64,000 bases of DNA from Malania oleifera (taxonomy: Eukaryota > Streptophyta > Magnoliopsida > Santalales > Ximeniaceae): positions 2,418,001 to 2,482,000 of the forward strand of contig NC_080421.1 of assembly GCF_029873635.1 (NCBI RefSeq), given 5' to 3'. Position 1 is the first letter of the stretch, and every line of letters begins with the position of its first letter. Made by a program: the position numbers and the translations under genes. Below, piece after piece: positions 26,050-57,470 of this stretch. The notes below the pieces were generated by a model that was not told the DNA's origin, searched no databases, and saw only the letters and a program-made list of their open reading frames with translations.

Positions 26050-26094
<45 letters not shown>

Positions 26095-26739: not shown

Positions 26740-28100
26740 CAACTGCTGATACTTCCGGCGTATTTCCGTCTTTAGTTCCCAAGAAGCTTCCTTGATCTCG
26801 TGATTTCGCCACAATACCTTCACCAATGGTATTTCTTTGGTACGAAACTTATGAACTTTATGGTCCAGAACCTGAACAGGTATTTTTTTCATATGCTAAA
26901 GTATTCTCGATTTCCAACTCATCATAACTAATAACATGAGATGGATCCAACACGTACCTTTTTAGCATGGATACGTGAAACACATCATGAACCATCGAGA
27001 GTGCTAGGGGTGGTGCAACTCTATAGGCTACCAGACCCACTCGCTCAATAACCTCGAATGGTCCGATGTACCTCGGGCTCAACTTGCCCTTCTTTCCAAA
27101 TCTCATTACTCCCTTCATTGGAGTGATTCTAAGGAATACTTTGCTCCCTACCTTGAACTTCAACTCACGGCGACGAACATCTGCGTAGCTTTTTTGCCGA
27201 CTCTAAGCCATTCTAATCCTCTCTCGGAACAAACCTAACTTCTCAAATGCCTACCGCACGAGTTCAGGTTTTAAAACCTGACGTTCCGGACCTCGTCCCA
27301 ATACAAAGGAGATCGACACTTTCGACCATACAAAGCCTCGAACGATGTCATCCCTATACTAGCATGGAAGCTATTGTTATAGGCAAATTCCACTAGTGGC
27401 AGAAATTGAATTCAACTACCACCGAAGTATAATACACAAGCCCGTAACATATCCTCCAAGATATGTATCGTCCTTTTTGACTGTCCATTAGTTTGGGGGT
27501 GGAATGTTGTACTGAAAGTAAGCTTCATCCCCAGTGCTTCCTACAAGCGCTTCCAAAATCGAGAAGTAAACCTCAGATCCCGATCTGAAACAATGGAAGC
27601 AGGCACTCCGTGTAATCTAATTATCTTCTGCATGTACATGTCTGCTAACTTCCTTAAAGGATAGCCAATCTTCATAGGTACAAAGTAAGCAAATTTCGAA
27701 CAACTTGTTCACGATCACCCAGATAGTATTATGCCTGTGAAGTGCTAACAGCACTTCACAGGCATAATACTGTAACAAAGTCCATGAAAATATACTCTCA
27801 TTTCCATACCGGAATAGGTAAAGGCTGCAACGACCCTGTCGGCCTCTAACGTTCAGCTTTCATCTGCTGACACGTCAGACACTGCTCTACAAATCGGACA
27901 ATATCCCTCTTCATACCACTTCCACCAAAAGGACTCACGCAAATCCCGATACATCTTCGTACTATCCGGATGTACCGTATACAAAGAACGATGTGCTTCC
28001 TCCAGAATCGTCCTTCTGATCTCATCGTCATTTAGAATACATAGCCTGGTCCCAAATCTTAACACACCTCTGTCAGAGATATTAAAATCCGCAGCCAAAC
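26740..28100 (-). pseudogene. pol: Element B integrase and chromodomain
   Basis: The integrase zinc region shows IVRFVEQCLTCQQMKAER near 27850. The C-terminal part (26858-27163) has FKVGSKVFLRITPMKGV, KLSPRYIGPFEVIERVG and MVHDVFHVSMLKRY, as in chromovirus integrases. A chromodomain follows near 26745-26860, with IPLVKVLWRNHEIKEASWE. Chromodomains are known to guide this clade to heterochromatin. The segment is broken in several places. Confidence 0.9.
27725..27771. repeat. Perfect short palindrome, 22-bp arms
   Basis: AGTATTATGCCTGTGAAGTG plus CT is followed after AAC by its exact reverse complement. It lies in the integrase part of element B. Such perfect short inverted repeats are typical of a template-switch event. 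Confidence 0.95.
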
Positions 28101-28206
28101 CCTGCTACACTTTCACCACAATCTCAGCTAACTCTGCATCATTAGCCTGCGCGGCTTTAATACGCTCATACAAGGTCGGCTGAATCACCAAGCTAGCAAT
28201 GAAAGT

Positions 28207-29892
28207 CTAATGATCACTGGACACCATTTCCACGCCAAGGCTTTCCAGATCCCGCCTGACATAATGCTGAGCTACAACTGCAGACACTGCTGCATGTTCT
28301 GACTTTCGACTCAACGTATCTGCTACCACATTAACCTTTCCCGGGTGATAACTGATCGTGCAATCGTAGTTCTTAATCAATTCTAACCACCGCATTTGCC
28401 TCATATTCAGCTCCTTCTGCATGAAAAAGTACCTGAGGCTTTTGTGGTGAGTGAAAATCTCACACTGAACATCGTACAGGTAGTGTCGCCAGATCTTTAG
28501 GGCATAAACTGTAGCAGCCAATTCTAGATCATGCGTAGGGTAATTCTTCTCATACTCCTTAAGTTGCCGAGAAGCATAAGCTACCACCTTACCCTGTTGC
28601 ATAAGCACACATCCCAAACCTTTCAGAGACACATTGTTATAAATCACAAAACCCTCATTCCCCAAAGGAATGGTCAATACTTGAGTAGTAACCAGCCGGT
28701 GCTTCAACTCGAGAAAGCATTGTTCGCAATCACTAGTCCAGTCAAATTTCACTCCCTTCTTAGTCAATCGTGTTAGAGGTCTAGACAATTTAGAGAATCC
28801 CTCCACGAACCGATGATAGTAACTCGCCAGTCCCAAAAAACTTCGAACCTCCTACACAGTCTTCGGTCTAGCCCAGTCGACCACAACATCAATCTTGCTA
28901 GGATCAACAGAGATACTGCCCCTAGACACCACATGACATAAGAACGCAACCTGATTCAAACAGAACTCGCACTTCTTCAGCTTAGCATACAACTTCTTCT
29001 TTCGCAGAATCTGTAGCACCAACCTCAAATGATTTTCATACTCTTCCGGACTTCTCGAGTTTACCGGAATGTCATCGATGAACACCACCACGAACTGGTC
29101 CAGGTATTCACGGAAAACCCGGTTCATCAGATCCATAAATACTGCTGGTGCATTGGTTAACCCAATTGGCATAACTAAGAATTCATAAGGATCATATCTG
29201 GTTCGAAAAGCAGTCTTTGCTACATCCTTAGATCTAACCCTCACCTGATGATATCCTGACCGTTGGTCGATCTTCGAAAAGACTTGCGTTCCCTGTAGCT
29301 GGTCAAAAAGATCATCTATTCGAGGCAAAGGGTAACGGTTCTTCACCGTCACTTTGTTGATCTCACGATAGTCAATGCACATACGCATCGACCCATCCTT
29401 CTTCTTCACAAATAATACTAAAGCTCCCCACGGCGAAATACTCGGTCGAATAAAACCCTGGTCCAGTAATTCTTGCATCTGCTCCTTCGACTCTCGAAGT
29501 TCTACTAGAGCAAACCGGTACGGAGCTTTAGAGATTGGTGCCTTGCGAGGCAGCAACTCTATCGCAAACTCCACCTCACGATCTGGATGTAAACCGGGTA
29601 GATCATCTAGAAACACATCTGGAAACTCGTTGATCACCCGAATATCCTCGAGTCTCAACGCATCCCGCGACGGTTCCTTCACGCAAGTTAGGTATCCCTG
29701 ACAACTATCCAAGAGTAACCTCCTCGTTTGCAATGCTGATAAAATCTGTGGCGTCGAACGCACACACGATCCCACGAACTCATACTCCTGCTTCCCAGGA
29801 GGTCTGAACACTACTACCTTTTTACGACAATCAATCACCGCATAGTTGGAGAACAACCAGTCCATTCCCAGTATGACGTCGAAACCCGACAT
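28207..29892 (-). pseudogene. pol: Element B reverse transcriptase and RNase H
   Basis: Two long minus-strand frames. The first (28852-29892) starts in the protease-RT link ([18 protein letters not shown]) and includes [30 protein letters not shown] and [19 protein letters not shown]. The second (28207-28836) starts [13 protein letters not shown] and holds RNase H text ending in [11 protein letters not shown]. These are textbook chromovirus blocks and are nearly open. Confidence 0.93.
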
Positions 29893-31202
29893 GTCGTATA
29901 TTACAAGATTTGCCTGTAGCAGTCTCTTTTAAATCACAACTGGGTAGTTTCCTAACGTCTTACTACAAATCGTTACACTCCTAGTCGGTGTAGTCATAGA
30001 CAACATCTCATTCATCACACAGGTTTCCGCCTCATACAACTTCACAAAACTAGCAGATATGAATGAATGAGTTGTCCCCGAATCAAATAAAACAATAGCT
30101 CTATTCGAAAGCAATAACATGGTACCTGTCACCACATTCCCTGCGTGTTCCGCATTTGTTGGAGTAAGTGAATATACTCTCGCCGGAGCCGTGGTTACTT
30201 GGTGATTCCCCCGAGGCATCTGATTACTCCCACGGTTCTGACTTTGTGCAGGCGTAATCCTCCTCTGTTCCTGACAGCTATTCGCCATGTGGCCCGATTT
30301 GCCACAATTGTAGCAGACACCCCAGAATTGCTGACATTCGCCATCGTGCCATTTACGGCACTTGACGCACGGTGCGGAGGATGGGTCCCCTTGAGAACTC
30401 AGCCGCTCGGTGTTCCGCCGATAAATAAAGCTGTAGTTCTTTTTCTTCTTCCATTGACCTTGCCAAAGACCACTCTAAGGACCAAAAGATACTGACCTCT
30501 TCCCTTGATCCTGCACTCCTTCATCTCCCCGAAGGTCGGTCTCAACTGTGGTGGCTTTATCCACCAGGACAGAGAACTCACGGATCTGCAGCATCCCCAC
30601 AAGATGGCGGATGTCTTTCCTCAGACCCCTCTTAAACCTTCAAGCCTTCTCATGCTCATTCGGAACCAAGTATGGCTCAAATCGAGATAACTCGATATAT
30701 CTGGCAGCATACCTCTGCACTATCAAAGTTCCTTGTGTCAGGCCGAAAAACTTATCAGCCTTTGCATCCCGAATGGAGACCGAAAAGTTTCTCTCGAAAA
30801 ATACCTTTTTGAAGCAGCCCCACGTCATACTAGATGGACCAGCTCTTTGCCTCTCAAGCAGATTCACCACCGTCCACCATCGCCCTACCTCCCTAGTCAG
30901 CTAGAAGGTAGCGTACAGGACCTTCTGCTTCCAATGCAGTGGAGGACTTTCAAAATCCTCTTGGTCTTCTCGACCCAGTCCTGCGCCACTATCGGATCAG
31001 GTCCTGCCGTAAATGTCGGAGGATGCATGCGTGTGAACCTCTCGATGGTACACCCCGCATCAATAGGAGAGCTCTCACGTCTCCTAACACTCCGCCCAAT
31101 CTCTCGGATTACTTGTCTCGACAAACCACGAGACATAGAATGACACTTATCGCTTGTCGCCTCCTTGGAGCCACTCTCCAAGTTATTATCCTTGGGCTCC
31201 AT
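29893..31202 (-). pseudogene. gag: Element B gag and protease
   Basis: ATG at 31202 opens MEPKDNNLES, with TIERFTRMHPPTFTAGPDP matching the gag of element H (CTIEQFTHIRPPSFAGEVDP). A zinc-knuckle region lies near 30300-30360. The protease has LFDSGTTHSFISASFV near 30060-30110 with the DSG active-site triplet. Several breaks. Confidence 0.88.
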
Positions 31203-31527
31203 TCTGAAAACAGAATAGGAATCAATTAGAATTCCTATATCATACGCAGTTAACACAATCATAGACCTAATCATGTCAACTATTATTCTCACAGATCTAA
31301 GCCTGTCTCGTCACACAGACACGAATTCATCAATGGTCTGCCCTGCCTTTACTGGAATCGTCATTTTAGGAAAAACACATAATACCACCGACACATCTCG
31401 ATCCAATAACAGAACAACTCTTGACCAACACTACCCATTTCCTACATCCTATACTCTGGTATGTACACATCAATACTCCTAACCAAATTTATAAGACCTA
31501 ACAACCTAGTTAGCTCTAATATCAAGT
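31203..31527 (-). other. Element B leader with primer binding site
   Basis: Between LTR and gag. The bases next to the LTR read TTGATATTAGAGC on the minus strand, a decayed form of the Met-tRNA pattern TGGTATCAGAGC. Confidence 0.6.
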
Positions 31528-33596
31528 TGTCACGCCCCGAACCCACAAGTGGGTCCCAAGTATAAAATTTAGTAACCTAATCTGTTTCTGTATCAATTAA
31601 AACATACATGATACAACAAAAAAAGAGGGTTCGACCCCGTGGGGTGAATGGATGCTCCATATACATACACATAAACATCCATACTCATCAAAATATGCAG
31701 CGGAATACGGTCTTTCTATACATAAACGGTACCATAGTAGAGTCTACTATACAAGGACATACGTCCCTAAGAATACCATACATACAACGAGCGTCTACAA
31801 AGTCCATCATGACAACCCGATTACAAAAACTTGTACCTATCAGGTACTAGCAGTAGCTAATGACACCCCCACTTCTACATGCTAGGATGCTAATTACAGC
31901 TATCTGAAGGACTTGAAAAACATTGTACATACGTTCGGGGTGAGACACCTCTCAATAAGGAAGAAAACAGGTTATATCGGTGTGTGGTATACCAGTGCTA
32001 TTTTACATACTTCATAACACGATAAAAAATACGATGCAGTTAGAAACATTTCCATACAATTTCATACAGTTACATACAGTTTCAGTATTTTCACAAAACC
32101 ATTCCAGTACATACTATACTCAAAACATATGGTCAGTGTCATCACACTAGTATGCAACTACACAAGATCACCTAAGTCTCACAGCGATTACATTGCTACA
32201 TACGCAACTACGTCGCGACGACCGAGACCCATAGTGATTACATTGCTCTATACGCAACTACACAAGGTCACCTAAGTCTCACAGCGATTACATTGCTATG
32301 CACACAACTACGCTGCGACAACTGAGGCCCACAGTGATTACATTGTTCCATACGGTGTAGAACACACCCATCGGTGACCAGCTAGAACATACTGGTGATA
32401 TTTCACACCCCGGATATAGAGTCGGTCACTCTCGCCCATGGTAGTTAACCGGTACATGGCGCAGCGTACGGTAATTAGTTGCCACATAACTGTTTCGGCG
32501 CATGGTAATTAGTCGCCCCTAACCGATTTCACAAAACTTGGAATCATTTTGGAATTCACGTTCCTATACATTTTAGCATACGGTAATAAGCCGTCACATA
32601 GTTGTTTTACAAATACCTAGAACAAATACATACAATCATACATACCACACTTATTTGGTTTACGGCCATATCGTTTACAAATTCAAGTATACAATTTATG
32701 TAAATATGGATTACGGTCACTTCAATAATACAGTTTCAACTAAACTAACAGTTTTCCAAACCAAGTAGAGATGATGCCTAAAATTCCAAATTTTCTCGAA
32801 AACTGTAACCCAAAAATCTCGCATTTTTACCCGATAGATTTGCTCAAATAAGTTACCAAAACATACATATGATCGTAGCATACAAGTTTACCGATCCTGA
32901 TTTCGAAAATAAATTGATATAAATAGAATCTCCTTACCTTAACCTGAATTTCAATTACGAACTCTACGGTTCTCAAAACTACGAACCAAGACTTCACAAC
33001 CTACAAACCATAGTACAATACATGCTTACAATTCGTACTACTACACATATACTAAATCATAAACGAAAATCGAGTCTTACCTCAATTTTTGCCCGAAACC
33101 CGAAAATGCTCAAAACGAGATTTTGATCAGCTAGAAACGTAGAGAATTCTTCCCTGATCCTCGCAGTAACATTGGATTTATGAATCAAACGATGAACGAT
33201 GAAGAAAAATCAAGGAGAGAGAGAGAGAGAGAAAGTTTCGAGTTCTAAAGAGAGGGAGAGAGGAATTTCCAAAACTAAGCAACCCCAAAAGATCTTTTAA
33301 AAGCCTTTGACCCAGGCGATTTCGTCGATGAGATGACATCCTCGTCAACAAGGTCTTTAGGGATTTCGTCGAAGAGACGGAGATTTCGTCGAAGAGACGG
33401 AGATTTCGTCGACGAACCTGATATTTCCAACTTTCCAGATCTCTCGGCTTTTCCTCATCGACGAGCCTTTGAATTTCGTCAACGAGGAGCCTTCAACCTC
33501 GTCTACGAATGATGGTCTCGTCGACGAAATCTGTACTATTACCCTTTTACCTTTCTTTCCATGTTAAACCCACATACTACGGTTCGGGTTCTTACA
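31528..33596 (-). mobile_element. Element B 5' LTR
   Basis: Begins TGTCACGCCCCGAACC and ends GGGTTCTTACA. It has the same internal landmarks as the 3' LTR: TGAGA-type block at 31937-31960, minisatellite 32150-32355, palindrome array 33320-33530 with a local duplication of TTTCGTCGAAGAGACGGAGA near 33363-33404. Confidence 0.9.
33320..33530. repeat. CGTCGACGA palindrome array, element B 5' LTR
   Basis: About nine exact or decayed copies. It is longer than the matching array of the other LTR because of a local duplication, so the array changes length. Confidence 0.85.
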
Positions 33597-35118: not shown

Positions 35119-37718
35119 TGTAACGCCCTGAGCCTCTATGTGGGCTCGGAGTGCTACTAATCCATTCATTTACCTGATAATTCACATTCTAATTAATGTA
35201 CGCAGCGAAAAATATAAATATAATCTTCCAAAAAATATAATACCAGAGTTTTCTAAATCTATCTACACACCATAATAAATTAATCATCCACATGTAATCA
35301 TATATATACATGTCTCCAAAACATAATCACTAAATACTAGTATTCTCAACCATCCATATCTCAGAAAACTTAAAACATAGAACATAAAACATAAATTTAT
35401 ACATCTCAAAATTAAATAAAAATATACTCTTTTCTCTTTCTATTTTTCAAAAATGTTATAAAACATCGATCTCTCTAAGCTCGATCTCGAGGAGGTCCTG
35501 AAAAAGATAAATTCATATTCGGGTGAGATACATCTTAGCAAAGGAAGAAACAATATATTAAATCAGTGTGTGACTAACATGAGTTTATATAACAACATAG
35601 TATTTAACATTTGAAAATCGTTAACGTAATTTTTGAAATCATTCTCTGAACCTAATCAATTACATGCAAAAGATTTAACCCATGAGATTACCTAAGGATA
35701 GAGGTGATTAACCGCTCATATAAGTAGTACCCCTCTACTCTGATACTTAGGCAACCTTAGGATCGCTACTGAAGCATACTAGAGTACTCACCTTACTCAG
35801 TAAGCCCTCAAGTATTAGATTGATCTCGTACTCACACAGTTCAAAAAAAGGTTTACCAATGAAGATCCCAAAGATAGGGAAATCTACTCGCCCATACAAG
35901 TAGGTTCCCTCTGTCCTAGTACGTTGTGCAGTTACTGCCACATTTGAAATTATTAGCGCACTTGCCTTTCTCAGCAAGCCCTCGGGCGAAGAGTACGTCC
36001 TGCCCAATCGTAATATGTTTTACAAGCATAGATACTTCTAGTATCATAATACATTATTCTTTTTGTCATTACTCAACCATTAACATATGTTCATGTTCAT
36101 AACTTTAACATAACATTTCATTTCATTTCACTTTAAGTGACTCTTTCACATTTTACATTATTCACATTTCACACTTCATTTCTATTCCATTCATTTCCAT
36201 TTTCATTTCATTTCATTACATACCTAGCATCTTTCAATTGTTTTATCCAACATTTTTCAATTATTTTACCCAACATTTTTCAGCTGCTCTACCCAGCATC
36301 TTTCAGTTGTTTTACCCAACACTTTTCAACTATTTTATCTTACATCTTTCAGTTATTTTACTCAGCATCTTTCAATTGTTTTATCCAGTATCTTTCAACT
36401 GTTTTACATGGTTGCATTAACATACACAAGCAGTATGGTTCATGTCATATTTTATTCTTAATGCTTCACTTACTTAGCTCACATCTCATACATTTAACAT
36501 ATATTCGCACAAAACTTACATTTTCTCATGTCACACAATTTAATAATAAAATTCATATATTGTCTGTAAAATAAGTCAACCAACATTTAACGTCTATATA
36601 TTGAAAATACTTTTCATTTCTTAAATAATTATTTTGAAAATATTTTCCACTTTCATTAGTTCATTTTCGCATATAAGTATCTAATAAACAGTCCTAAACT
36701 CGAAAAAATACAATTTAAATGGTTGGCATTTTAAACTCATATCAAAACATATACACGTATATATAACACAATCATTTTTCATTAAATTCATACAAATTCT
36801 GGTTTAATATATATTTTTCTTCTTACCTAGTTTTTTGAACTACGCCAATAGGGACCCCGAAAAGATGTCTGCGGCACTCACACAGACCCTAAAATAAAAA
36901 TCATAATTTCATCAAATTAATCCTAAATAAAATATTATTTTAATATTTTCTAAACTCATAAAAATTAAATAAATGGTTATACCCTCATATATAACCAATT
37001 TACCAAAATTTTTAAATCTCACTCTCGCTTTGAAGTGGGGCCTAGAAAACCTCAATTGAAATTTTATTTCAACCAAAATGACGACGATCATGACTAGAAC
37101 CTCATGGTGGTACCTGATCGTCGATTTGACAGAAGATCTAATGAGAAATTGAGAAATTAGGAAAAAATTGTCTTACCTTAAGAATGGTGTCTACACCGCT
37201 CCAACGACAAATCCGCTTCAGTAAAAATGTCGGTGGCGGAGTTAGGAACCCAACGGTACCTTCCGCTTTCCGATCGGCGCTCGTTAGGCTAACAAAATTG
37301 ATGAGAGAGAGAGACGTAGACGGATGAGTGGACGGAGAAAGAAGAGAGTGAGAGAGGCTGAGTGACGATGCAAGAGAACTTTTGTTCTGTCTGCAATCTC
37401 CCAGGAAGCTTTAACTTTCTTCTTTTCTCTTTTCTTTTATTTTTTTCCCTTTACTTACTTTATCATATGATAATAATAATAATATTATATATATATATAC
37501 TTTAACCATTGCATATGTATATCATATTATTTATTTAATAAATCAAATTTAACAATACTTAATTAATTAATTGATTAGTAATAAATAATTTTAATTTAAT
37601 TTATTTTTTTATTCCTTTTATTTATTTATTTTATACATTAATTTAATAATGTTCAATTAGTTAATTGATTAATAATTTTAATTAATTAATTTTTTTATTT
37701 TTTTCTCGAGTTATTACA
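35119..37718 (-). mobile_element. Element D 3' LTR (2.6 kb)
   Basis: Starts TGTAACGCCCTGAGCC and ends CTCGAGTTATTACA. A direct partner starts at 38485. Landmarks: the TGAGATACATCTTA-type block at 35524, CTTTTTCAG on the minus strand near 35505, minisatellite 36225-36415, donor-like CTAG|GTAAGAA near 36828 and TTAAG|GTAAGAC near 37175. It belongs to the same broad family as the LTR of element H (TGTAATAACCCC...GCATCACA). Confidence 0.88.
36225..36415. repeat. LTR minisatellite, about 21-bp unit
   Basis: Nine or so copies of a unit like CATCTTTCAGTTGTTTTACC. The matching array of the other LTR is at 39585-39765 with shuffled variants. Frames over it are artefacts. Confidence 0.92.
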
Positions 37719-38484
37719 TTCTTCTCTCCTTCAAGAAATTTCGTCTTTGAAATTTTGCTAACTAATTAATCATTTCCTCATTTTAGACATTCATTAACTC
37801 ACTATATCTCAATATTTATCCAATGAATTCCTACATTATCCATAATGAAATAAAATCATCATATAAACTTTTCAATTATCTATAACCAAATTAAATCATT
37901 ATTATTTTAATCATTAACTCATACCTGCCCCCTAACAATATTTGCTTCAGTCGGGATCAACGAGTACACTCGTCCTGGTCCACCTCTTTCTAGTAGTACT
38001 TCTTGTTTCCCCCGATACCATAACTTCTGAAATCAACTAACCAACATCATATCATATATTTCCATATCCTCCAATTTAAATATCAAACACTCAACTTGAC
38101 CACAAACCATTTAATCACATCACCTAAATTATTTTCCTTCAAAAATTTTTCTCCCTAAATCAACCAACCTAACCTTCGAGTTCAAATTCCAAGTTTTAAT
38201 TTTTATGCTCGGAAACATCACCGTTGATGGATTTATCATGATTTTCTAAAGCTAACTACTTCTTTAGAAAAACACAGAAGACTGCTATCAAGGGATTTCT
38301 GCCCCCAAACTTACGAAACACAACTCAAAATTCCTAACGGTATCTTAATTTACTCATCTCTATCCTTATCGCAACCCAATCCTATACTCTGGTATAAATC
38401 ATTCCTAACCTAATACTAACATTTTTTTATCCAGGCGATGTGAAATTAATCACACTTCCGGCTAGACATTTCTCTGATACCATC
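37719..38484 (-). mobile_element. Element D interior, only 766 bp
   Basis: On the minus strand the interior starts GATGGTATCAGAGAAATG, a Met-type primer binding site next to the LTR, and ends in the purine-rich GAAGGAGAGAA. In between only a short match to the gag-protease passage survives (GRVYSLIPTEAN near 37930-37990, compare ARVYSLTPTNAEH in element B). Gag, reverse transcriptase and integrase are absent, so it is a large-LTR, non-coding derivative. Confidence 0.8.
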
Positions 38485-40297
38485 TATAACGCTCCGACCC
38501 TCTACGTGAGCCTGAAATGCTACTAATCTATTCATTTACCTGATAATTCACATTCTAATATCATGTACGCAGTGAAAAACATAAATATCATCTCCCAAAA
38601 AATATAATACCAGAGTTTTCTAAATTTATCTACACACCATAATAAATTAATCATTCACTTGTAATCATATATATACATGTCTCTAAAACATAATCCCCAA
38701 ATACTAGTATTCTCAGCCATCCATATCTCAGAAAATTTAAAACATAGAACATAAAATATAAATTTATACATCTCAAAATTAACATAAAAATATACTTTTT
38801 TCTCTTTCTATTTCCCAAAAATGTTATAAAATATCGAGCTCTCTAAGCTCGATCTCGAGGAGATCCTGAAAAAAAATAAATTCATATTCGAGTGAAACAC
38901 ATTTCAGTAAGGAAAGAAACAATATATTAAATCAGTGTGTGACTAACATGAGTTTATATAATAACATAATATTTAACATTTGAAAATCGTTAACATAATT
39001 TTTGAAATCATTCTCTGAACCTAATCAATTACATGCAAAAAATTTAACCCACGAGATTACCCAAGGATAGGGGTGATTACCTGCCCTTACAAGTAGCACC
39101 CATCTGCTATAATACTTAGAAAGGTCGTTAAAGCATAACAGGGCACTCACCTTACTCAGTAAGCCCTCAAGTATTAGATTGATCTCGTACTCATACAGTT
39201 CAAACAAAGGTTTACTGGCGAAAGCCCCAAGGATAAGGAAATCTACTTGCCCATACAAGTAGATTCCCTCTGTCCTAGTACGTTATATAGCTATTGTCAC
39301 ATCTGAAGTTACTAGCATACTGGTCTTTCTCAGTAAGCCCTCGAGCGAAAAGTACGCCTCGCCCAATCGTAACATGTTCTACAAGTATAGATACTTCTAG
39401 TATCATAATACATTGTTCTTTATGTCATTACTCAACCATTCACATATGTTCATGTACATAACTTTAACTTTTCATTTCATTTCACTTTAAGTGACTCTTT
39501 CCCATTTTACATTGTTCACATTTCACACTTCATTTCCGTTCCATTCATTTTTATTTTCATTTCATTTCATTTCATTACATACTTAGCATCTTTCAGCTGT
39601 TTTACCCAACATCTTTTAGCTATTTTACGCAACATCTTTCAATTGTTTTACCCAACATCTTTTAACTGTTTTACCCAATAATTTTCAGCTATTTAACCAA
39701 CATCTTTTAGTTGTTTTACCCAATATCTTTCAACTATTTTACCCCACATCTTTCAGTTGTTTTAGATAGTTGTATTAACATACACAAGTAGCATGATTTA
39801 TATCATATTTTATTCTTAATGTTTCACTTATTTAACCCACATTTCATACATTTAACATATATTTGCACATAACTTACATTTACTCATGTCACACAATTTA
39901 ACAATAAAATTCATACATTGTCTGTAAAATAAGCCAACCAATATTTAACGTCTATATACTGAAAATACCTTTCATTTTTTACATAATTATCCTAAAAATA
40001 TTTTCCACTTTCATCAGTTCATTTTCGCATATAAGTATCTAATAAACAGTCTTAAATTCGGAAAAATATAATTTAAATGGTTTGCATTTTAAACTCATAC
40101 CAAAACATATGCACGTATATATAACACAATTCATTTTTTATTAAATTCATAAAAATTTTAGTTTAATATATATTTTTCTCCTTACTTGGTTTCTTGAATT
40201 ACGTCAACAGGGACCCCGAAAAGATGTCTGCGGCGCTCACCCAGACTCTAAAATAAAAATCTTAATTTCATCAAATTAATCTTAAATAAAATATTGT
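38485..40297 (-). mobile_element. Element D 5' LTR, truncated
   Basis: Matches 35119 onward for about 1.8 kb at roughly nine bases in ten, with the same block at 38890, minisatellite at 39585-39765 and exon-like block near 40195-40250. The match stops near 40297, so the U3 end and the outer target duplication are lost. Confidence 0.85.
39585..39765. repeat. LTR minisatellite, about 21-bp unit (second LTR)
   Basis: Eight or nine copies related to 36225-36415, with units in a different order. Confidence 0.9.
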
Positions 40298-41565
40298 TAA
40301 ACTTATGTTTAGAAACATGAATTTTGACTTTAGTGTGTGTGAAAGAGACCCATGAATCAAATTTTAATTTAAGGAGAAGTGTTCCCTTCATACTCGGATT
40401 AACACCAACCCAACTCAATAACTAAATTGGGTAGGCTGAAAACGCATATCCTCATGGTCACCCTCTATTATAGAAAGTATTTGACCTATTCATATTCTAT
40501 TGCCTCTTACTTAAATTTGATACACGTGCTAAACAAATTTTACTTCTTTTAATATTATGATTTATTATGAATGTGACTCACATAGCATTCATTTTACAAA
40601 CAAATAAAAAACACATGATTTGACCGATGAATTCTTTTATCGACATTTTGATAATGTTTTAATAATAAAGAGGCATATATTAATAATCATCCAAAATGCT
40701 TGAAAGAAAGAGGGTTTCAAAAGAGATGTTAGACACGTGGTAGTGAAATGTCAAAAAGAAAAATTAAACATAATAATTTTAAAATTATTAATAATTATTT
40801 TAATATCGTTAAGTAATGTGCTCGGCCAAGAGCATATATTCTAATTTTCTACTTGGCTAGCAAATGAAATATAGGTGTTGAATTTAAATTTGTTGAATTG
40901 AAGTGTTAAAAATTAAATTGGACTGAAGGTTTTAGTTGAATCGGTACTCACAATATAATAAAACGTGTCCAAAAGCGATTTGTGTTTAAAAAGGGCAAGT
41001 GTTAATGAAAAGTTTAGTATCCAAGCACCCGACCACAAAATAAAACGGAATAAAATTAGATAAATTTTCAACCTAAATATTTAGCCTCAAATCTCAATCA
41101 TAGTTGTGCCCAAATTGAGCCTATACAAAGTTTGCAATAATATTTGCATTAACAATGTATTATTGACATTTTCCAATGTTTATTGGTGAATCAAATCGAA
41201 CCAAACTCATAATAAAATCATAGTCTAATTAACTTTCAATTCGGTTATCAAATATCTTACTTTTTAAAAGAAAAAAGGATTTTTTACTTGGGTTCTAATT
41301 CAATGAAGGCAATCATAGTTTTACTAAGATGGGTTTCAAGCACCAAAACAATTAAATTAGTCGCTCAAATCTGTTCCAAAAAGAATATGTGAGATCTTCC
41401 ATGTGCGAAAAATTAGAATAAAATAAAAGTTATCCTACATTTCTTGCTCAATCAAAATTTCAAAACTATGCATAAGAAATTGCTAATTTTGTCGAAAGAT
41501 AAAGATAGATATAGTAAATTATATGTTTCAAAAGTATCTCGAGCACATCAGATTTTAACCGCCAA
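40298..41565. other. AT-rich DNA with a repeat shared with the inverted-repeat locus
   Basis: No coding frame seen. The segment around 40710-40820 (GTGAAATGTCAAAAAG and the following TTAAACATAATAATTTTAAA) matches 14890-14970, the downstream flank of the gene in the inverted repeat. Thus gene-family flanks are present here in a different order. Confidence 0.6.
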
Positions 41566-44098: not shown

Positions 44099-44103
44099 AT
44101 TTA
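44099..44103. other. Target-site duplication of element K, left
   Basis: ATTTA directly before the left LTR; an exact copy follows the right LTR at 48543-48547. Confidence 0.92.
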
Positions 44104-44850
44104 TGTAATGAATCTGCTAGTATGAGCTGTATGAATGGATCAATTTCAATAGGAAAATAGAATGAATGAAATGAATGGATGAATTTCAATAAGAAATTAG
44201 AATGAATGGAATGAATGATTGAATGGAGATTTATTGAATGCAATAAAAATGAAAATGAAGTTACAGGATGGCTGGTTCGAGAGAGCCACTCTCCAAAAGA
44301 AACAAAAAGACAAACAGATTCTCAATTTTCTACTCTCTCTATTCCCGTTGCCCCTTAACTTTATACCTAGCAAACTCTAACTAACTATTCTGGAATACCC
44401 CTTGCGCTCTACTACAGTTGGCCCCTTAACACGTAAGCAACGATGAGTCGTTAAGGGAGTTCGGCCCAGCACCCAGCCCAGCTGCCACGTGATCCACGCC
44501 TCGGTCCATGACAACCCGAGCTACGAAGAGCGGACCTGCGAATGGCCGACCTACCCACGCGCTCACTCTGTTCAGCCTCTTCTGACGACCCCAGCTCAAC
44601 ACCATCTGCCCGAGCTCCCCTGCGATCAGCTGTTCTGTCCGAGCCCCTCAAGCCCTCTATTCGAGCTCCCCTGTGATGGGTCGTCTTGTCCAAGCCCTCA
44701 ACCAGCTCGGCATCTCTTCTATCTGACAACCAGCTCGGACCCCTTCTATTTGCATTCCCTAGTGACGAGTTACCTTGTCCGAGCCCCTCGATCTGCTTGG
44801 ATTCCCCTCTAGTCAGCGTCTCCGACCTTCCTCTGTCTCGGCTTGTAGCA
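44104..44850 (-). mobile_element. Element K 3' LTR (747 bp)
   Basis: Plus-strand start TGTAATGAATCTGC and end GCTTGTAGCA. GC-rich in the half nearer the polypurine tract, with degenerate tandem units around CGAGCTCCCCTGYGAT. Open frames read from this LTR on either strand are not genes. Confidence 0.92.
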
Positions 44851-44851
44851 A

Positions 44852-44868
44852 TACCCTCCCCTTTTGAG
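44852..44868 (-). other. Polypurine tract of element K
   Basis: On the minus strand, CAAAAGGGGAGGGTAT lies directly before the 3' LTR. Together with the primer binding site it fixes the element's orientation. Confidence 0.85.
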
Positions 44869-44926
44869 CACCTTGCCCACAAGGTGAGGAAAACTTCTCC
44901 TTCCACTTATGATACCACTTCCACGC

Positions 44927-46789
44927 ATCTTTTACTTTGTATTCCCAAGACTCGTGATGAACTAAAACATACTGAAGAGAGAATATGACGAGCAATGACA
45001 AAATCATTTTCAACACGTCTCCACAAGCTGCATGGTGAACTCTCACACTGAAGTAGTTAATGGGCAATAGCTGTCATTCTGCTCACGGTCTATTAAAAGA
45101 AATGTTGCAAGTTTTTCAGAAAGCAACCATGAGGCACTTCTTGTAACATTACAGCCAACACCAAATGTATTTGTTGCTAAATTCACCTCAAATATATTTG
45201 TCTTCAGAGCCACTACTGTCACATGAGATCGTGAACATTTCAATATCTTTGCCAAAATGCTAACACCCATGGACACTACAACACTGCCATGCAAATTAGG
45301 TGATAATTTTTTGATGAATGTGCATACAATCCCTACCACATCAACCCACAGTTTTGTTTCCATCTGGCCATTTGTATGAGTTTCCAAAACAAGCAATGGG
45401 TTGCCAACATTTATCAAATTAACACATACAATTGTGTTGAAGGAAACTAGTTGACAAAGCAGATTAGGAGTAACAAGGACTTCCTTATTGCTATCAATAT
45501 GAAGCTCTTGAGCCAGGCGAAGAAGCAGTACTAGCACCCCAGATTGAGCATACTCCCACCATACAAGAGCAACATTTTGGTCAATTACTTTCAAAACATG
45601 GCCATGGGTTTCACTAGGAATAATCAAACCTTCCACTCCAGGATCGTGCAAAGGCAAATGTGTTTCGGCAATTTGAGAAGTATTATCCATCAAAGTATTG
45701 CTGCTAATCTCAAACGAAGATGATATACCAACGGATTTATCTAGGAAATTTTACACACATTTTGCCGGCCAAGCTCCTTCAAAGAGAGCAGATAAAAGGC
45801 GAATAAATTCCACAATCCTAAATGGGAATTCACCCTCTAAGTTCCAAAGAAGATGGTGAATAGGCCCATCAATGAAGCTGTCCTTGTCCCAAGACTGCAC
45901 ACAAAATGACTCCTCTCCTTGATAAACGCTACAAAGGAGGTCCAGAGTCAACTTGAGGGTATTATCTTCTACCTGATGATTGATCTTATAAGACGCTATG
46001 AATGCAAAAACAAATGTTCTCATAACACTTCTGTAACCAGCAACTGGTACATCAAAATCCTCCAATACATCGCTCTGAAGGATCTCAAGAAAATTGTTCA
46101 ATGATACGGCCTCAAAAACTTGACAAACCAAACCTATATGGTCAATCTCCATTAGCAAATTAATTTCCTTTTTTTCCTGAAAGTGGTGAAATTAAACAAA
46201 GAAACACTGCCCATGTAAAAATTGAAGGCCTAGCTTCTTTTGTTTGAAACACATCAAACACAGAATTTATAGCATCCAGCTCTTGCATATCAGTCACAGA
46301 AGACACAAAGGAACCCTGCGTGCACGGTGTTTCATCATGAATCATTTGAAGAAAATTACTCGGGTCCAAGGTTTCTATAACGATAAGTGAGAGTCAAACT
46401 TTGGCATGATAACTTGACAGTACTACTTCAGTGGATACTGCCAGCTTTCCACAGTTAAATGACCCAAATATGATTCCCTTATAAGTTGAGCATAATATTT
46501 TCCATTGCTCACTGTTGCCACTGCAAAATGACTCGTAATAAGCATAGAGGAGGATGTCCAATATCAAATTTTCTTCTATCAGTATCTCCTCAGCCCACAA
46601 AGTGAACAAATCAACATCCATATGCTCAAGATGGCTAGAAGATAGAGGGTTCTGGAGAACAGATAACAAGTTGCCTTCCAATCCATTAGAAACCAAATTC
46701 AGTACCTCCTTTTTAATGGCACTGTTTTCTTTGGAGCAAATTCCATGATATAAAGCATGCATAAAATTCTGCTTGGTGCATTCCACCAC
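44927..46789 (-). pseudogene. NUP188: Captured NUP188 segment (nucleoporin)
   Basis: Text typical of plant NUP188, a large scaffold nucleoporin of the inner pore ring, runs in order: CTKQNFMHALYHG, LFTLWAEEILIEENLILDIL, LDPSNFLQMIHDETP, FTWAVFLCLISPL, LEGEFPFRIVEFIRLLSAL, LPLHDPGVEGLIIPS, WWEYAQSGVLVLLLRLAQEL, SMGVSILAKILKCS and FSLQYVLVHHESWEY. It spans about 620 codons of a protein near 1900 residues, taken from the N-terminal half. Coding blocks are collinear with no intron-sized gaps, although nuclear NUP188 genes are expected to be multi-exonic. A few breaks make it a pseudogene copy. The true NUP188 gene should lie elsewhere. Confidence 0.9.
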
Positions 46790-47164
46790 TAAAAAGGAAT
46801 GAAACAATAGACTCACAGTCAAAGCCGTAAAATTAGCATTCACGTCCTCCCAACAAAAATTCAGCAATCGCGGAAGCCAATTGCTCCTCTCCAGTCCCTT
46901 TCGACCAAACTTCTCAGAAATCTCAGCGAACTGCTCAAAAATCTCTTCATATTTCTCATCTTCTTCGTCCTCATAACACCCTGTTCCCCCTTTATCCACT
47001 TCCTCAACTACCGAAACCTTGCTAGCAGGAAGCGGTTTCAACCCTTGCAAAAACTCCATTATAGGGGGACCCTTGAACGAAGACATTCCTAAAGCCCCCA
47101 TAGAACTCGCTTTCGAGACACCCGCTTATGACTTCATCAAGGAAATCAAACCCAACACAAGATA
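46790..47164 (-). pseudogene. Captured thylakoidal processing peptidase (TPP/PLSP) N-terminal segment
   Basis: Minus-strand text LISLMKS, SSFKGPPIMEFLQGLK, VDKGGT and FTALTVSLLFHSFL matches the region before and including the membrane segment of chloroplast type I signal peptidases (TPP, also called PLSP1-type). In the real gene the next residues are the AEPRSIPS-type block with the catalytic Ser; here the text switches to NUP188 instead, so the catalytic part was never captured. The junction lies near 46789, and the frame stays open across it. Family assignment rests on memory of plant TPP sequences. Confidence 0.78.
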
Positions 47165-47490
47165 GTGAGATTTTATGTGATTGCAGCCCTGGAACGGGTG
47201 CGAGAACCTCGTTTTTTTGGTCTCAGCGTAGCTCGGTAGCTTGGCGAGCGCTTCTGGGGTTGTGAGCTGATTTCCGTAAGCTCGCATGCGCTTTATCAGC
47301 TTGACATCTCGATGAAATCCCTTTCCGCAGATCTCATAGAATTGGATGTGCTCGACAAGCGACTCCTTAGCGTCGAGCTCCATGATCTCGCACTGATCGT
47401 CACTGTCCATCTCATCAACCGCCTCCTCGTTGACCGCCTCCCCCTTCATCGAAATTTTGTTCCGATCATCGGAAGAGTTACTGATAAGTT
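47165..47490 (-). pseudogene. Captured STOP1-like C2H2 zinc-finger segment
   Basis: The text EIMELDAKESLVEHIQFYE, then ICGKGF, RAYGNQLTTPEALAKLP and RFSHPFQGCN follows the first zinc finger and linker of STOP1/STOP2 (SENSITIVE TO PROTON RHIZOTOXICITY) transcription factors, whose usual forms read ICGKGFKRDANL and GNQFKTPEALAKP. Those proteins act in the nucleus in proton and aluminium tolerance. The zinc-ligand set is incomplete, so this copy is not expected to bind DNA. The piece joins the TPP segment near 47164. Confidence 0.8.
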
Positions 47491-47800
47491 CGCAGAGGAT
47501 GATCTCCGCTTGGAACGCTAATGTCTCTGCCTCTGCTCTGTCTATAATGTGTTGCTCCCCATTGGAGCTCTCACGGTGTTGGTATTTGAAGTCGCGGCTC
47601 GATGTCTCTCCTGACCCTTCCTAGTCGAGTTTCTGCTTGCCAAGAAGCTTCACAGCATCGGAGAGAGCTCCCAACTGTTGAGTCACGGTGATGAGAAGCT
47701 TCTGCTGTTCGGCTTGAGTGATTTGCTGCTCTTCTTGTGATCTCTTCAGGGTAGCAATGGACTCCCACATCTGGTTCATGCAAGTTTCCTCTCCCATGGT
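47491..47800 (-). pseudogene. Element K leader frame, possible gag N-terminus
   Basis: After the primer binding site an ATG at 47797 opens MGEETCMNQMWESIATLK and a Gln/Glu-rich helical stretch (EEQQITQAEQQKLLITVTQQ). That style is common at the N-terminus of plant LTR-element gag proteins. It is short, broken, and runs into the STOP1-like piece. It could instead be a fourth captured fragment that I do not recognise. Confidence 0.45.
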
Positions 47801-47807
47801 GGTAGAA

Positions 47808-47825
47808 GTTTGGCTCTGATAACAA
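47808..47825 (-). other. Primer binding site of element K
   Basis: The minus strand reads TTGTTATCAGAGCCAAAC just inside the LTR. The core TATCAGAGCCA follows the Met-initiator tRNA pattern TGGTATCAGAGC. Confidence 0.85.
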
Positions 47826-47826
47826 T

Positions 47827-48542
47827 TGTAATGAATCTGCTAGTATGAGCTGTATGAATGGATCAATTTCAATAGGAAAATGGAATGAATGAAATGAATG
47901 GATGAATTTCAATAAGAAATTAGAATGAATGATTGAATGGAGATTTACTGAATGCAATAAAAATGGAAATGAAGTTACAGGTTGGCTGGTTCGAGAGAGC
48001 CACTCTCCAAAAGAAACAAAGAGACAAACAGATTCCCAATTTTCTCTCTCTCTATTCCCGCTGCCCCTTAACTTTATACCTAGCAAACTCTAACTAACTA
48101 TTTTGGAATACCCTCTACGCTCTACTACAGTTGGCCCCTTAACACGTAAGCAACAATGAGTCATTGAGGGAGTTCGGCCTAGCACCCAACCCAGCTGCCA
48201 CAATGACCCGAGCTGCGAAGAGCCGACCTGCGAATGGCCGACCTGCCCACGCGCTCGCTCTGTTCGACCTCTTCTGACGACCCCAGCTCAGCACCATCTG
48301 CCTGAGCTCCCCTGCGATCAGCTGTTCCGTCCAAGCCCCTCAAGCCCTCTGTTCGAGCTCCCCTATGACAAGTCGTCTCGTCCGAGCCCTCAACCAGCTC
48401 GGCATCTCTTCTATCTGACAACCAGCTCGGACCCCTTCTATTTGCGTTCCCTGGTGATGAGTTACCTTGTCTGAGCCCCTCGATCTACTTGGATTCCCCT
48501 CTGGTCGGCGTCTCTGACCTTCCTCTGTCTCGGCTCGTAGCA
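47827..48542 (-). mobile_element. Element K 5' LTR (716 bp)
   Basis: Starts TGTAATGAATCTGC and ends GCTCGTAGCA on the plus strand. It lacks a short stretch present in the partner near 44488-44510. The near-start part holds a 36-bp tandem pair (ATGAATGGATSAATTTCAAT). The 5-bp duplication ATTTA follows at 48543-48547. Confidence 0.92.
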
Positions 48543-48547
48543 ATTTA

Positions 48548-50937: not shown

Positions 50938-52098
50938 CTAGTCCTCACTTACATCCAATGACATTGCAGTAATCCAAGCAGGAGGTGGCCAAAACAGTTC
51001 AGAGCAACCTCGGGAATCATCTATCCTGCGACCTTCATCCAAATCAAATACTTCTATATCCCCTAAATCAGTGAAATATATGCAATTTCCTTTACGCCCA
51101 TAGAAATCAGAAGCCGAGGCAGAGAATGCACAATTGTCCCCCAAGAACAAAATACGATCTCCCAAGCTTCTCACTTCAACCCACTTCTGCTCGCTTCGTG
51201 ACAACCTGTAAACTTTGAACCGACCCATCCTCTCACTCAAAATCCGTGGTAATTCCTCAGAAGAACCGTCACCCTCGTCAACATCTGAATCTTCTTCCGC
51301 TAAACCCATTCTCAGATAGACGTCGACCAGCAACAATTCGCCATTCGACTCAACCAAACATTTCTTGTCACCACCAAACATCGCACCCGCAATCAAATTC
51401 ACACTCGGAGACGGCTCCATTTCCACAACCACAGCCCTTCCGTTGCCATCAACTGCGTAGAATCGCCCATCGAAGAGCGCCACATCGTCGTAAGGCGACG
51501 GGAAATCCTCAATTACAGACCAATTCTCGTCCCCAGACTTGAACACAGCCAACTTTCCAGAGATATGAATTGTCAAAACCGCGAAAGTACCATCTGGATT
51601 CGAAGCAAAAACCACCTTTTCCATGTACAAATTATTAACATCGCCTAGGGCATCAGCAAATGGACGAGAATTAACGTACTGAAGAACGTATTCGCGACCC
51701 AACTCGGAGATACGAATGTTAGACAAGTCCAGGGTTCTGGGAAATGTTGAGGAGAGGCATTTCGATTTGAGGGAAGAAAGGGGGTTGAGCAGGCAAATCG
51801 ACTGAGGAACGTTCTCCTCGACCTTGATGAGCCAATCATCAGAGGGAACCCGGCGGCGAGGCTCCGGTAATCCCAGGCGGCAGATGGTGCGTTTGGATAG
51901 GTAGAAACCGCCGGACGTCTCGGTAGTACCGTCGTTTTGAATGATCGGGAAGCGTGAAGGTAAGCTGGGAGCTCGGGGCGAAACGGAGCACCGCCAGGAG
52001 GAGCAGACGGATCGGAATCGGAGGAGATCAAAGTGGTTGTCGAGGCGTTTAGCAATTAGTACTAAGAGTTCTCTGGGGAGATCAGACCACTCGGCCAT
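50938..52098 (-). CDS. F-box protein, SKIP23-like (DUF295)
   Basis: A single open frame of 386 codons without introns. Residues 3-45 form an F-box (WSDLPRELLVLIAKRLD, LRFRSVCSSWR), the surface that binds SKP1/ASK proteins in SCF ubiquitin ligases. The C-terminal half carries the DUF295 beta-rich region: NGELLLVDVYLR near 255, WVEVRSLGDRILFLGDN near 310 and GNCIYFTD near 340. Length and layout are as in Arabidopsis SKIP23-type proteins, which act as substrate adaptors; the substrate is unknown. An acidic insert (EEDSDVDEGDGSSEE) near 270-285 is of the variable kind. The ATG at 52098 is the first in frame and begins the conserved MAEWSDLP start. No breaks are seen and codon use is ordinary, so this is a resident gene, the only intact one in the window. 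Confidence 0.95.
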   Translation of the reverse strand: MAEWSDLPRELLVLIAKRLDNHFDLLRFRSVCSSWRCSVSPRAPSLPSRFPIIQNDGTTETSGGFYLSKRTICRLGLPEPRRRVPSDDWLIKVEENVPQSICLLNPLSSLKSKCLSSTFPRTLDLSNIRISELGREYVLQYVNSRPFADALGDVNNLYMEKVVFASNPDGTFAVLTIHISGKLAVFKSGDENWSVIEDFPSPYDDVALFDGRFYAVDGNGRAVVVEMEPSPSVNLIAGAMFGGDKKCLVESNGELLLVDVYLRMGLAEEDSDVDEGDGSSEELPRILSERMGRFKVYRLSRSEQKWVEVRSLGDRILFLGDNCAFSASASDFYGRKGNCIYFTDLGDIEVFDLDEGRRIDDSRGCSELFWPPPAWITAMSLDVSED

Positions 52099-52198
52099 TT
52101 TTTGGGAATAGAGTTTTCCGGCAAAAGGTCGAGAGAGGAGGAATTAGAAAATGTTGGCAGAGAGAGAGAGACCGGGCAAAGGGAAGACTGAGAAGTTG

Positions 52199-55918: not shown

Positions 55919-55949
55919 TATAATTAAATTCAAGAATGGATAAAAAGAA

Positions 55950-57470
55950 CCATCTATAAATTTAAATTGACATTAAATAAATTAAAAATTTTAATTTAAT
56001 TATTAATACTATTTTTAACATAAATTAATGTGATAACCATATGTTATAAAATATACATTAGTAACACGATTATTTTCATTTAACAAATAATATTATATTA
56101 CTTTATTTTTAAAAAAAATTAAATTATAAATTAACATAATTATCATTTAAAAAAATAATTATAAATTTTAATATTTTTATTTAAATATATATTTAAAATA
56201 TATATTAATTATTATAATTCAATTTTGGGTCTAACAATAGCTATTTATTAATTTAAATCAGCATTAAGTAAATTAAAATTTTAAATTTAATTGAGAATAT
56301 TACTTTTATCACAATTTAATATGATTGTAATATGCTATAAATATACGTGACAAGATTATTACTAATTAAAAATAATAATCTTATATTATTTTTTAATTCC
56401 AAATATTTACATTTTAATTATAAATAATTAAAATAATTGTTAATTAAATTATTAATTAAAAAATGTTATTATTTTTTTAATTTAAAATATGTTTAAAATA
56501 TTCACATAATAACCTATAGTAAAAGTATTTATCCAAATATCACTTGTTTCAAATACAACCAAAAACGACTTATAACTTTTAGTACTTATTAAATTCAAAA
56601 CTTTTCTGAGTACTTCTACATAGTTCCAAACAATCCATATGTGGTATTTGATTATGTTTAAGTGGTATTTGAATATTTACTTTTATTTTATGATACTATA
56701 TAATTATTTTAAAAGATATTTCAGATTACAAATATTAATATTTTCTAATCAAAAATTTTATTAATAATTATGTTAATTTTTTATAATTAAAATTTAATTA
56801 TTTTTATTTAAAATAATATAATCTTATTTTTTTTAGTTAACAATAATCTTGTTATTTATAACATGTTACTATCATATTAAATTAAGATAAAAATAATATT
56901 ATAAATTAAATGTAAAATTAAATTCATTTAATATTAATTTAAATTAATAAATAGTTCTTGTTCAATCTAGAATTGCATTATAATAACTAATGTCATAATA
57001 CATAGTAAAATAATATATAGTTATTTTTAAATATATTTTAACTAAAAATATTAATATTTTTATAATTAAAAATTTCAATGATAATTATATTAATATTCAA
57101 ATTAAATTTTTAATATTTTTTTAAATAAAGTTATATAATAATATTATTCATTAATTAAAAATAATCTTGTTATTAATGTATGTTTATAACAATATGATTA
57201 TCACATTAATTTATGCTAAAGATAATATTAATAAATTAATTAAAATTTTAATTTATTTAATGTTAATTTAAATTTATAAATGTTTATGTTAAAAATAATA
57301 TTATCAATAAAATTAATATTTTTAATTTTTATTATTATTTTAAATTAATAGATGGTTATTCTTCATTTCAGAATTGAATTGTGTTTAATTAATAATTAAT
57401 ATATTGTAATACATACTAAAATAGTATATGATTATCTTTTATTGTATTTTTAAATTATAAAATAGCCACT
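55950..57470. repeat. AT-rich array of direct and inverted units
   Basis: A unit of roughly 250-300 bp (landmarks TTAAATTGACATTAAATAAA, TAATGTGATAACCATATG, ACACGATTATT) occurs twice in one direction (about 55955-56230 and 56240-56480). It returns in the other direction at about 56700-56990, 57040-57300 and partly to 57470. The whole forms a loose palindrome centred near 56590. No coding capacity. Confidence 0.7.

What the first reader, a model, noticed from the sequence alone, without database searches (positions are those of the whole stretch)
44104..48542. LTR element whose cargo is three unrelated host genes
Seen: two LTRs, a perfect ATTTA target duplication, primer site and polypurine tract, with an interior made of STOP1-like, thylakoidal processing peptidase and NUP188 segments in one orientation and no gag-pol. 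Known: gene capture by LTR elements is documented (for example Bs1 in maize), but three donors in one small element would be notable. Inference: successive template switches between element RNA and host mRNAs during reverse transcription, with mobilisation by another element. LTR divergence near 6 percent dates the insertion to a couple of million years.
Basis: partly seen in the sequence, partly recalled or inferred. Interest (0 to 1): 0.92.

Follow-up and report, generated by a model that had tools for sequence, protein, structure and literature searches.

The report
Retrotransposon family stitching host genes together
In the genome of the tree Malania oleifera, a family of jumping elements has copied pieces of about ten ordinary plant genes from their messenger RNAs and joined them, mostly in reading frame, into long hybrid genes; the element in this window carries four such pieces and a young relative carries eight in one unbroken frame.

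Summary
The window holds a complete LTR element (44104-48542, sense on minus) with TSD ATTTA, a tRNA-Met-like primer site, a polypurine tract and LTRs 6.3% apart. The genome is Malania oleifera. I read 26 relatives: 11 keep gag or gag-pol, 15 carry host cargo in other combinations, adding trehalose-6-phosphate synthase, a heavy-metal ATPase, a DHX29-like helicase, a PPR gene and more. A young copy (LTRs 0.7% apart) has eight donors in one uninterrupted 1104-codon frame. NUP188's parent spreads the captured part over about 48 kb of exons; the cargo is contiguous, so spliced mRNA was the template. Three of five resolved joins share 8-13 bases; 15-16 of 17 junction types keep frame. Best reading: Bs1-like transduction by template switching, repeated and recombined, with selection for an open hybrid frame. 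Bs1 already has three donors; scale, recombination and frame filter look new.

The parts
44099..44103 (.). target-site duplication ATTTA, left
44104..44850 (-). 3' LTR (747 bp)
44854..44865 (-). polypurine tract AAAAGGGGAGGG (minus strand)
44866..44924 (-). native 3' tail of the family; the 75-nt tail+PPT query matches 19 of the 20 relatives (all but L026) and 6 of 6 gag-pol copies
44925..46789 (-). captured NUP188 mRNA piece (residues about 138-760 of a 1940-aa homologue), without introns, with stops and frameshifts
46790..47161 (-). captured thylakoidal processing peptidase piece (residues about 95-214 of P0011), 89.5% nt identity to the parental gene on C8
47165..47458 (-). captured STOP1 zinc-finger piece (about residues 192-289 of P0005)
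47460..47545 (-). captured HSP90 N-terminal piece with an in-frame internal deletion of about 15 codons between two Glu-Ile pairs
47549..47797 (-). gag N-terminus, 83 codons, one nonsense change
47811..47826 (-). primer-binding site (tRNA-iMet-like, recalled)
47827..48542 (-). 5' LTR (716 bp)
48543..48547 (.). target-site duplication ATTTA, right

Best explanation
This is a decayed copy of a non-autonomous Ty3/gypsy-type element from a Malania oleifera family that repeatedly acquires host coding sequence. Shown: gag-pol relatives share its gag start and 3' tail; the NUP188 cargo lacks the introns of its parent; modules occur in different combinations in different copies; several joins lie at short shared words; nearly all junction types keep the natural frame of both partners; a young copy has its whole interior as one open frame with eight donors. 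Inferred: host mRNAs and sister element RNAs are co-packaged in particles supplied by the gag-pol relatives, and reverse transcriptase switches template at short identities, placing mRNA pieces between the retained gag start and 3' tail. Also inferred: only chimeras that keep one long frame from the gag start codon go on multiplying, because translation stabilises the RNA (escape from nonsense-mediated decay) or is coupled to packaging, while the amino-acid sequence drifts with little constraint.
For: Helpers: L029-L034 match gag-pol probes and carry the tail; L027 has RT, RNase H and protease domains. Spliced template: the NUP188 parent lies in separate exon matches on C5, residues 194-771 over 47,986 bp, while the whole cargo piece is 1,865 contiguous bp with no inserted stretch apart from 5 residues at its 3' join; the best candidate parent of the helicase module is split over 27 kb on C9. 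Parents apart: STOP1 on C7, TPP on C8, NUP188 on C5 at 5.7 Mb. Mosaic copies: module maps. Microhomology of 8, 13 and 8 nt at 3 of 5 resolved joins. Frame: 15-16 of 17 junction types, 4.5e-6 or 2.7e-7 at 1/3 each. L012: 1104 codons without a stop, LTR K2P 0.007, although its STOP1 piece differs from the parent at 50 of 302 alignment columns; 9.1 stops expected at 0.08 substitutions per site, P(0) 1.1e-4. Damage rises with LTR age (Spearman 0.61, p 0.036, 12 copies) from an intercept of 2.1 +- 2.3 per 1000 codons.
Against: One junction type (TPS start|VARLMGL gene, L022) is out of frame and another (gag|helicase gene) is in frame in only 1 of 3 copies. The module peptides were mostly cut from long open frames of L012, L021 and L019, so cargo captured out of frame and without a long ORF could have been missed; one search looked at ORFs of 90 aa or more in all six frames, which only partly covers this. 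Two of the five resolved joins share 0-3 nt, and two further joins asked there (both sides of the ATPase piece in L013) could not be resolved. The linear slope of damage on age is not significant (p 0.11). Pairwise omega (group medians 0.38-0.74) is mostly within the neutral range for this mutation spectrum (0.48-0.74); only TPS lies below it, so there is little sign that the hybrid protein does anything. Expression, packaging and mobilisation were not observed. Inherited junctions are not independent events.
Confidence: 0.86

Rival explanations
1. DNA-level capture: a Helitron or Pack-MULE that had collected gene fragments inserted into an LTR element.
For: In maize, Helitrons and other DNA transposons capture more gene fragments than LTR elements do (passage).
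Against: DNA capture keeps introns, but the NUP188 piece is contiguous where its parent is split over about 48 kb. No inverted repeats of 20 nt or more flank the cargo (shorter ones were not searched). The cargo lies between the same gag start and 3' tail in copy after copy.
Confidence: 0.03
2. The hybrid coding sequence first arose as a host chimeric gene and was captured once, whole.
For: The STOP1-TPP join is the same in the 7 copies displayed.
Against: Copies differ in donors and order; L010 and L012 join modules of two or more subfamilies, partly at microhomologies. The STOP1 and TPP searches of the genome returned separate parents besides element copies.
Confidence: 0.05
3. Template switching made the chimeras, but the frame agreement is chance, inheritance or a bias of detection, and no selection acts on the hybrid frame.
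For: Several junctions are inherited by many copies; most module peptides were cut from long open frames, so out-of-frame cargo may have been missed; the amino-acid sequence evolves near neutrality.
Against: 15-16 of 17 junction types are in frame, and the frames of STOP1, TPP, NUP188, TPS, ATPase, helicase and PPR are the natural ones by independent homologues. The young L012 has 1104 open codons despite old cargo.
Confidence: 0.15
4. LINE-type retroposed gene copies landed inside an LTR element.
For: The cargo is of mRNA origin.
Against: No A or T run of 8 or more lies in the window copy's interior; the STOP1, TPP and NUP188 pieces are internal and cut at both ends; copies share the same joins.
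Confidence: 0.02

Closest known systems
Bs1 of maize
   Same: LTR element with segments of three host genes and a chimeric gene reported as transcribed and translated (review passage; [quoted passage not shown] PMC2899935 is not held)
   Different: Four donors in the window copy, eight in L012, about ten across the family; several mosaic subfamilies that recombine with each other; gag-pol relatives found in the same genome
LTR elements with gene fragments in maize B73
   Same: 425 intact elements with gene fragments from at least 189 captures (passage in PMC2774510)
   Different: That survey reports no case, under its conditions, of one element with fragments of more than one standard nuclear gene
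LTR-captured genes of rice and sorghum
   Same: 672 and 1,343 captured genes (abstract and passages of PMC3726574)
   Different: The passages I saw describe single captured genes; the tables were not read
Veju TRIM and BARE-2 elements
   Same: Abnormal template switching between unlike RNAs in one particle gives chimeric LTR elements (review passage)
   Different: There the partner is an unknown sequence or another retrotransposon, not a series of host mRNAs

Membership tests
LTR retrotransposon | two LTRs with TG..CA ends, PBS, PPT, short TSD | tested here: met
   PBS identity to tRNA-iMet is recalled
Ty3/gypsy family (non-autonomous member) | gag and ends shared with elements that have Ty3/gypsy-type domains | tested here: met
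   gag piece 86% to P0159 (Retrotrans_gag, RVP_2); gag-pol relatives
Ty3/gypsy family (non-autonomous member) | integrase after RT-RNase H (order that separates Ty3/gypsy from Ty1/copia) | not tested
   only protease, RT and RNase H were scanned
Ty3/gypsy family (non-autonomous member) | own pol missing | tested here: met
   the 2,977-nt interior is filled by gag start, host pieces and tail
Bs1-type gene-transducing element | spliced host mRNA pieces between LTRs, in sense orientation | tested here: met
   splicing was testable for NUP188 and, as a candidate, the helicase
Bs1-type gene-transducing element | hybrid open reading frame | tested here: met
   all modules in one frame in the window copy, with stops; unbroken in L012
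Bs1-type gene-transducing element | transcription and translation of the hybrid frame | not testable with these tools
   no expression data
Helitron or Pack-MULE | cargo with introns of the parent gene | tested here: not met
Helitron or Pack-MULE | TIRs or Helitron ends around the cargo | tested here: inconclusive
   no inverted repeats of 20 nt or more; shorter TIRs and Helitron ends were not searched

The most novel reading that the evidence does not exclude
An LTR retrotransposon family works as a continuing, reading-frame-filtered exon-shuffling engine. It keeps its gag start and 3' end, samples host mRNAs and sister elements by template switching, and only in-frame hybrids spread, because the open frame itself (not its sequence) is needed for RNA survival or packaging. 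This would explain how retroelements build multi-gene chimeric coding sequences, and it predicts frame agreement at new junctions well above one third in other families too.
Probability: 0.5. Interest if true: 0.92.

Novelty: new variant of a known kind. Interest (0 to 1): 0.86.

Why it matters
Gene capture by LTR elements is usually described as single: a maize survey found no element with pieces of more than one standard nuclear gene, and Bs1 with three donors is the classic exception. Here it is serial, modular and, it seems, filtered by reading frame, in one genome that also holds the likely helper elements and the three parental genes checked. That makes three old questions testable: whether retrotransposons build chimeric genes step by step, how template switching picks its sites, and why non-autonomous elements keep an open frame. 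The young eight-donor copy is a natural case for asking whether such hybrids are transcribed and translated.

Tried and rejected
Pfam on the window's ORFs gave only weak, irrelevant matches; the donors were found through homologues. A chance HSP90 match was tested with shuffled DNA and shuffled peptides and rejected. Intron evidence from recurrent gaps in annotated NUP188 proteins was weak and is superseded by the parental gene. STOP1 and TPP cannot test splicing: STOP1 is a single exon and the captured TPP part lies within one exon match. An estimate from the window alone that the cargo is older than the insertion agrees with the parental STOP1 comparison. dN/dS as a sign of protein function was set aside: group medians of 0.38-0.74 against a neutral range of 0.48-0.74, with TPS alone below; STOP1 cargo against its parent gives 0.21-0.41, which includes the constrained parent's branch. 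The TPS and heavy-metal-ATPase parents were asked for and never answered; the HSP90 and PPR parents were not searched for on their own.

Dropped rows: 12 of 16 cargo copies were used; L011, L018, L022 and L024 were left out (truncated, interrupted, or without a usable LTR pair). Of the 21 copies, I take 16 LTR pairs as this family's own; L022 and L024 have none, and the pairs printed for L011, L018 and L026 do not sit at this family's LTRs. L041 and L042 were only partly read and are not in the junction count; that the oxidoreductase piece of L041 lies inside the element was not checked against a 3' LTR. In one search, 8 junction views were asked: 6 were displayed (5 distinct joins, the TPP|TPS join twice) and 2 could not be resolved. 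The family was not enumerated: searches return the scored part of their candidates.
Full report
WHAT IS IN THE WINDOW. The element fills 44104-48542 exactly, with its sense strand on minus. The LTRs are 44104-44850 (3') and 47827-48542 (5'), flanked by ATTTA at 44099-44103 and 48543-48547. LTR divergence is 45 of 716 sites, K2P 0.067, with 43 transitions and 2 transversions. With recalled rates of 1.3e-8 or 7e-9 per site per year this is 2.6 or 4.8 million years, to be read with care given the transition excess. No second copy lies in the window.

CARGO. In sense order: 5' UTR, 83 codons of gag (86% identical to Malania protein P0159, which has Retrotrans_gag and retroviral protease domains), HSP90 N-terminus, STOP1, thylakoidal processing peptidase, NUP188 (E 3.5e-220), 3' tail, polypurine tract. 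The modules start in the same reading frame as gag; in the mapped modules the frame is now broken by five stops and one frame change, and the last NUP188 stretch near 45001 is again in another frame. The copy is dead as coding sequence: at 98 NUP188 columns that are at least 95% constant among 95 plant proteins it differs at 20 (20%), against a median of 1% and a maximum of 11% in those proteins.

THE GENOME. The window lies at C5:2418001-2482000 of a 1.49-Gb assembly. The Malania STOP1-like protein P0005 is found there at 100%, and contig C296 has the length given for the contig of P0159. I take the species as Malania oleifera.

PARENTAL GENES. STOP1: one exon on C7; the cargo is 83-87% identical at the nucleotide level in 12 of 12 copies compared. 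TPP: C8; 88-91% identical in 7 copies compared, with one 138-nt piece of L009 at 86%; 372 contiguous nt in the window copy. NUP188: C5 at 5.71-5.80 Mb, in separate exon matches; residues 194-771 span 47,986 bp, against 1,865 bp for the whole cargo piece. An alignment of the cargo with plant NUP188 proteins shows no inserted stretch apart from 5 residues at the 3' join. Helicase module: the best candidate parent has pieces of 58-81% identity spread over 27 kb of C9. So at least the NUP188 template was spliced RNA, and the three donors located sit on other chromosomes or 3 Mb away. The parents of HSP90, TPS, the ATPase and PPR were not mapped; the TPS/ATPase search did not complete.

THE FAMILY. 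The element search returned 59 matches, with 40 of 236 candidates scored; the gag-start search returned 40 matches, with 40 of 80 candidates scored. I read 26 relatives. Eleven keep gag or gag-pol (L015, L016, L026-L034); L027 shows reverse transcriptase, RNase H and protease domains, L029-L034 match gag-pol probes, and L026 was read only in part. Fifteen carry host cargo. Subfamilies: A, HSP90-STOP1-TPP-NUP188 (window, L009, the first half of L010, parts of L011 and L012); B, a longer STOP1, TPP, TPS, with a heavy-metal ATPase piece inside TPS (L013, L014, L020, L021); C, HSP90-STOP1-TPP, then TPS (L023, L024), TPS with the ATPase piece (L025), or another gene with a VARLMGL motif (L022); E, DHX29-like helicase and PPR (L017-L019). 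Family names rest on Pfam (GT20 1e-143, trehalose phosphatase 2e-38, HMA 7e-20, PPR 2e-8, VARLMGL 1e-5) and the PDB search (DHX29 1e-45, PPR10 2e-23). Two further loci, L041 and L042, carry STOP1 after gag, and L041 has a pyridine-nucleotide oxidoreductase piece behind it (5e-17), not checked against a 3' LTR. That makes nine host genes seen inside read elements and a tenth likely; two of the ten (VARLMGL gene, oxidoreductase) were seen in one copy each.

L012. This copy on C9 has LTRs that differ at 5 of 695 sites and TSD GGGTC (read). Its interior is one frame of 1104 codons without a stop: gag start, HSP90, STOP1, TPP, TPS, helicase piece, PPR, heavy-metal ATPase, NUP188, tail. In L012 itself Pfam gives GT20 2e-130, PPR 8e-5 and HMA 0.005, the last two below Pfam's cut-offs; the helicase, PPR, ATPase and NUP188 pieces are placed by similarity to the modules of other copies (81% to the L019 helicase module, 92% to the L021 ATPase module, 87% to the window's NUP188).

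HOW IT WORKS. Five distinct joins could be compared with both sides in other family members. NUP188|helicase in L010: both sides share AGATAATA. PPR|ATPase in L012: both share TCTAGAAGAAATG. ATPase|NUP188 in L012: both share TGTTGGCA (L012 itself has one change in it). TPP|TPS and TPS|helicase: 0-3 nt, judged by eye. Under a simple model a join with 8 or more shared bases has probability 1e-4. This fits template switching during reverse transcription, between element RNA and mRNA and also between element RNAs. The shared gag start, primer site and 3' tail are what a helper-dependent RNA would have to keep; mobilisation by the gag-pol relatives is inferred, not shown.

THE FRAME. Frames at junctions, from the translated searches, by junction type. 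In frame in at least one copy: gag|HSP90, gag|STOP1, short gag|HSP90, HSP90|STOP1, STOP1|TPP, TPP|NUP188, TPP|TPS start, TPP|TPS short cut, TPS|ATPase, ATPase|TPS end, TPS|helicase, helicase|PPR, PPR|ATPase, ATPase|NUP188, NUP188|helicase, and gag|helicase gene (L019 only; L017 and L018 out). Out of frame: TPS start|VARLMGL gene (L022). That is 16 of 17, or 15 of 17 if gag|helicase is counted as out; at one third each the chance is 2.7e-7 or 4.5e-6. This overstates the case: not all joins are independent, and most module peptides were cut from long open frames of L012, L021 and L019, so out-of-frame cargo could have been missed, except where one search showed an ORF. Single copies are out at STOP1|TPP (L014) and TPS|ATPase (L025), where other copies are in. 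In 12 copies damage rises with LTR age (Spearman 0.61, p 0.036; linear slope p 0.11; intercept 2.1 +- 2.3 per 1000 codons), as if frames were open at insertion. L012's STOP1 piece differs from the parent at 50 of 302 alignment columns (32 transitions, 16 transversions, 2 gap columns); if about half of that arose in the element, 9 stops would be expected in its frame and none is there. Yet pairwise omega (medians 0.38-0.74) is mostly within the neutral range of 0.48-0.74, TPS alone lying below it. An open frame kept while its sequence drifts points to selection on translatability more than on a protein function. That last step is inference.

LITERATURE SEEN. Review PMC13317346, passages: Bs1 has segments of three host genes and a chimeric gene. 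PMC2774510, passages: 425 maize LTR elements with gene fragments and no case of more than one standard nuclear gene under its conditions. PMC3726574, abstract and passages. PMC4838847, passages. In eight listings searched for gene capture, multi-donor or hybrid-frame LTR elements I saw no title or abstract start that describes a family like this one; the listings show 6 to 44 or more hits cut at 10-20 rows (2), and most subscription papers are not held.

Noticed in passing
window 24365-33596: Another LTR element: direct repeats of about 1.8-2.0 kb (88% alike) around gypsy-like protease and RT frames at 28207-30474 (identity of the frames recalled, with a 25% match to P0159).
   Followed up: no
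window 35121-40298: A pair of 1.8-kb direct repeats (88%) with only about 1.5 kb between them: probably a second non-autonomous LTR element.
   Followed up: no
window 12334-15201 and 55948-57285: Inverted self-matches (12619-15201 at 89%, 12334-12618 at 92%, 55948-57285 at 75%): foldback or palindromic structures.
   Followed up: no
window 50938-52143: A 401-aa frame on the minus strand that looks like an F-box gene (recalled), about 2.4 kb from the element.
   Followed up: no
window LTRs 44104-44850 and 47827-48542: Very high transition excess (43:2) in this copy, against 16:8 in L009 and 18:6 in L010: perhaps strong methylation-driven decay at this site.
   Followed up: no
L009:1585-5796: A 4.2-kb insertion inside the TPP module; the two query matches around it overlap by 9 nt, and it holds a BED-finger/hAT-like transposase frame (recalled).
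   Followed up: no
L012:1459-4770 (minus): The 1104-codon hybrid frame runs on past the interior (1193 aa stop to stop).
   Followed up: partly
L041, L042 and further STOP1 matches (C7:6704422, C10:6891528, C8:14466929, C11:6540975, C4:1347865, C2:40484310): A further subfamily with gag, STOP1 residues about 122-257 and, in L041 and L042, helicase pieces; L041 adds a pyridine-nucleotide oxidoreductase piece.
   Followed up: partly
matches (for example C2:106059335, C13:29064529, C9:4715075, C6:107474771): Many more loci carry the helicase-PPR module than were read.
   Followed up: no
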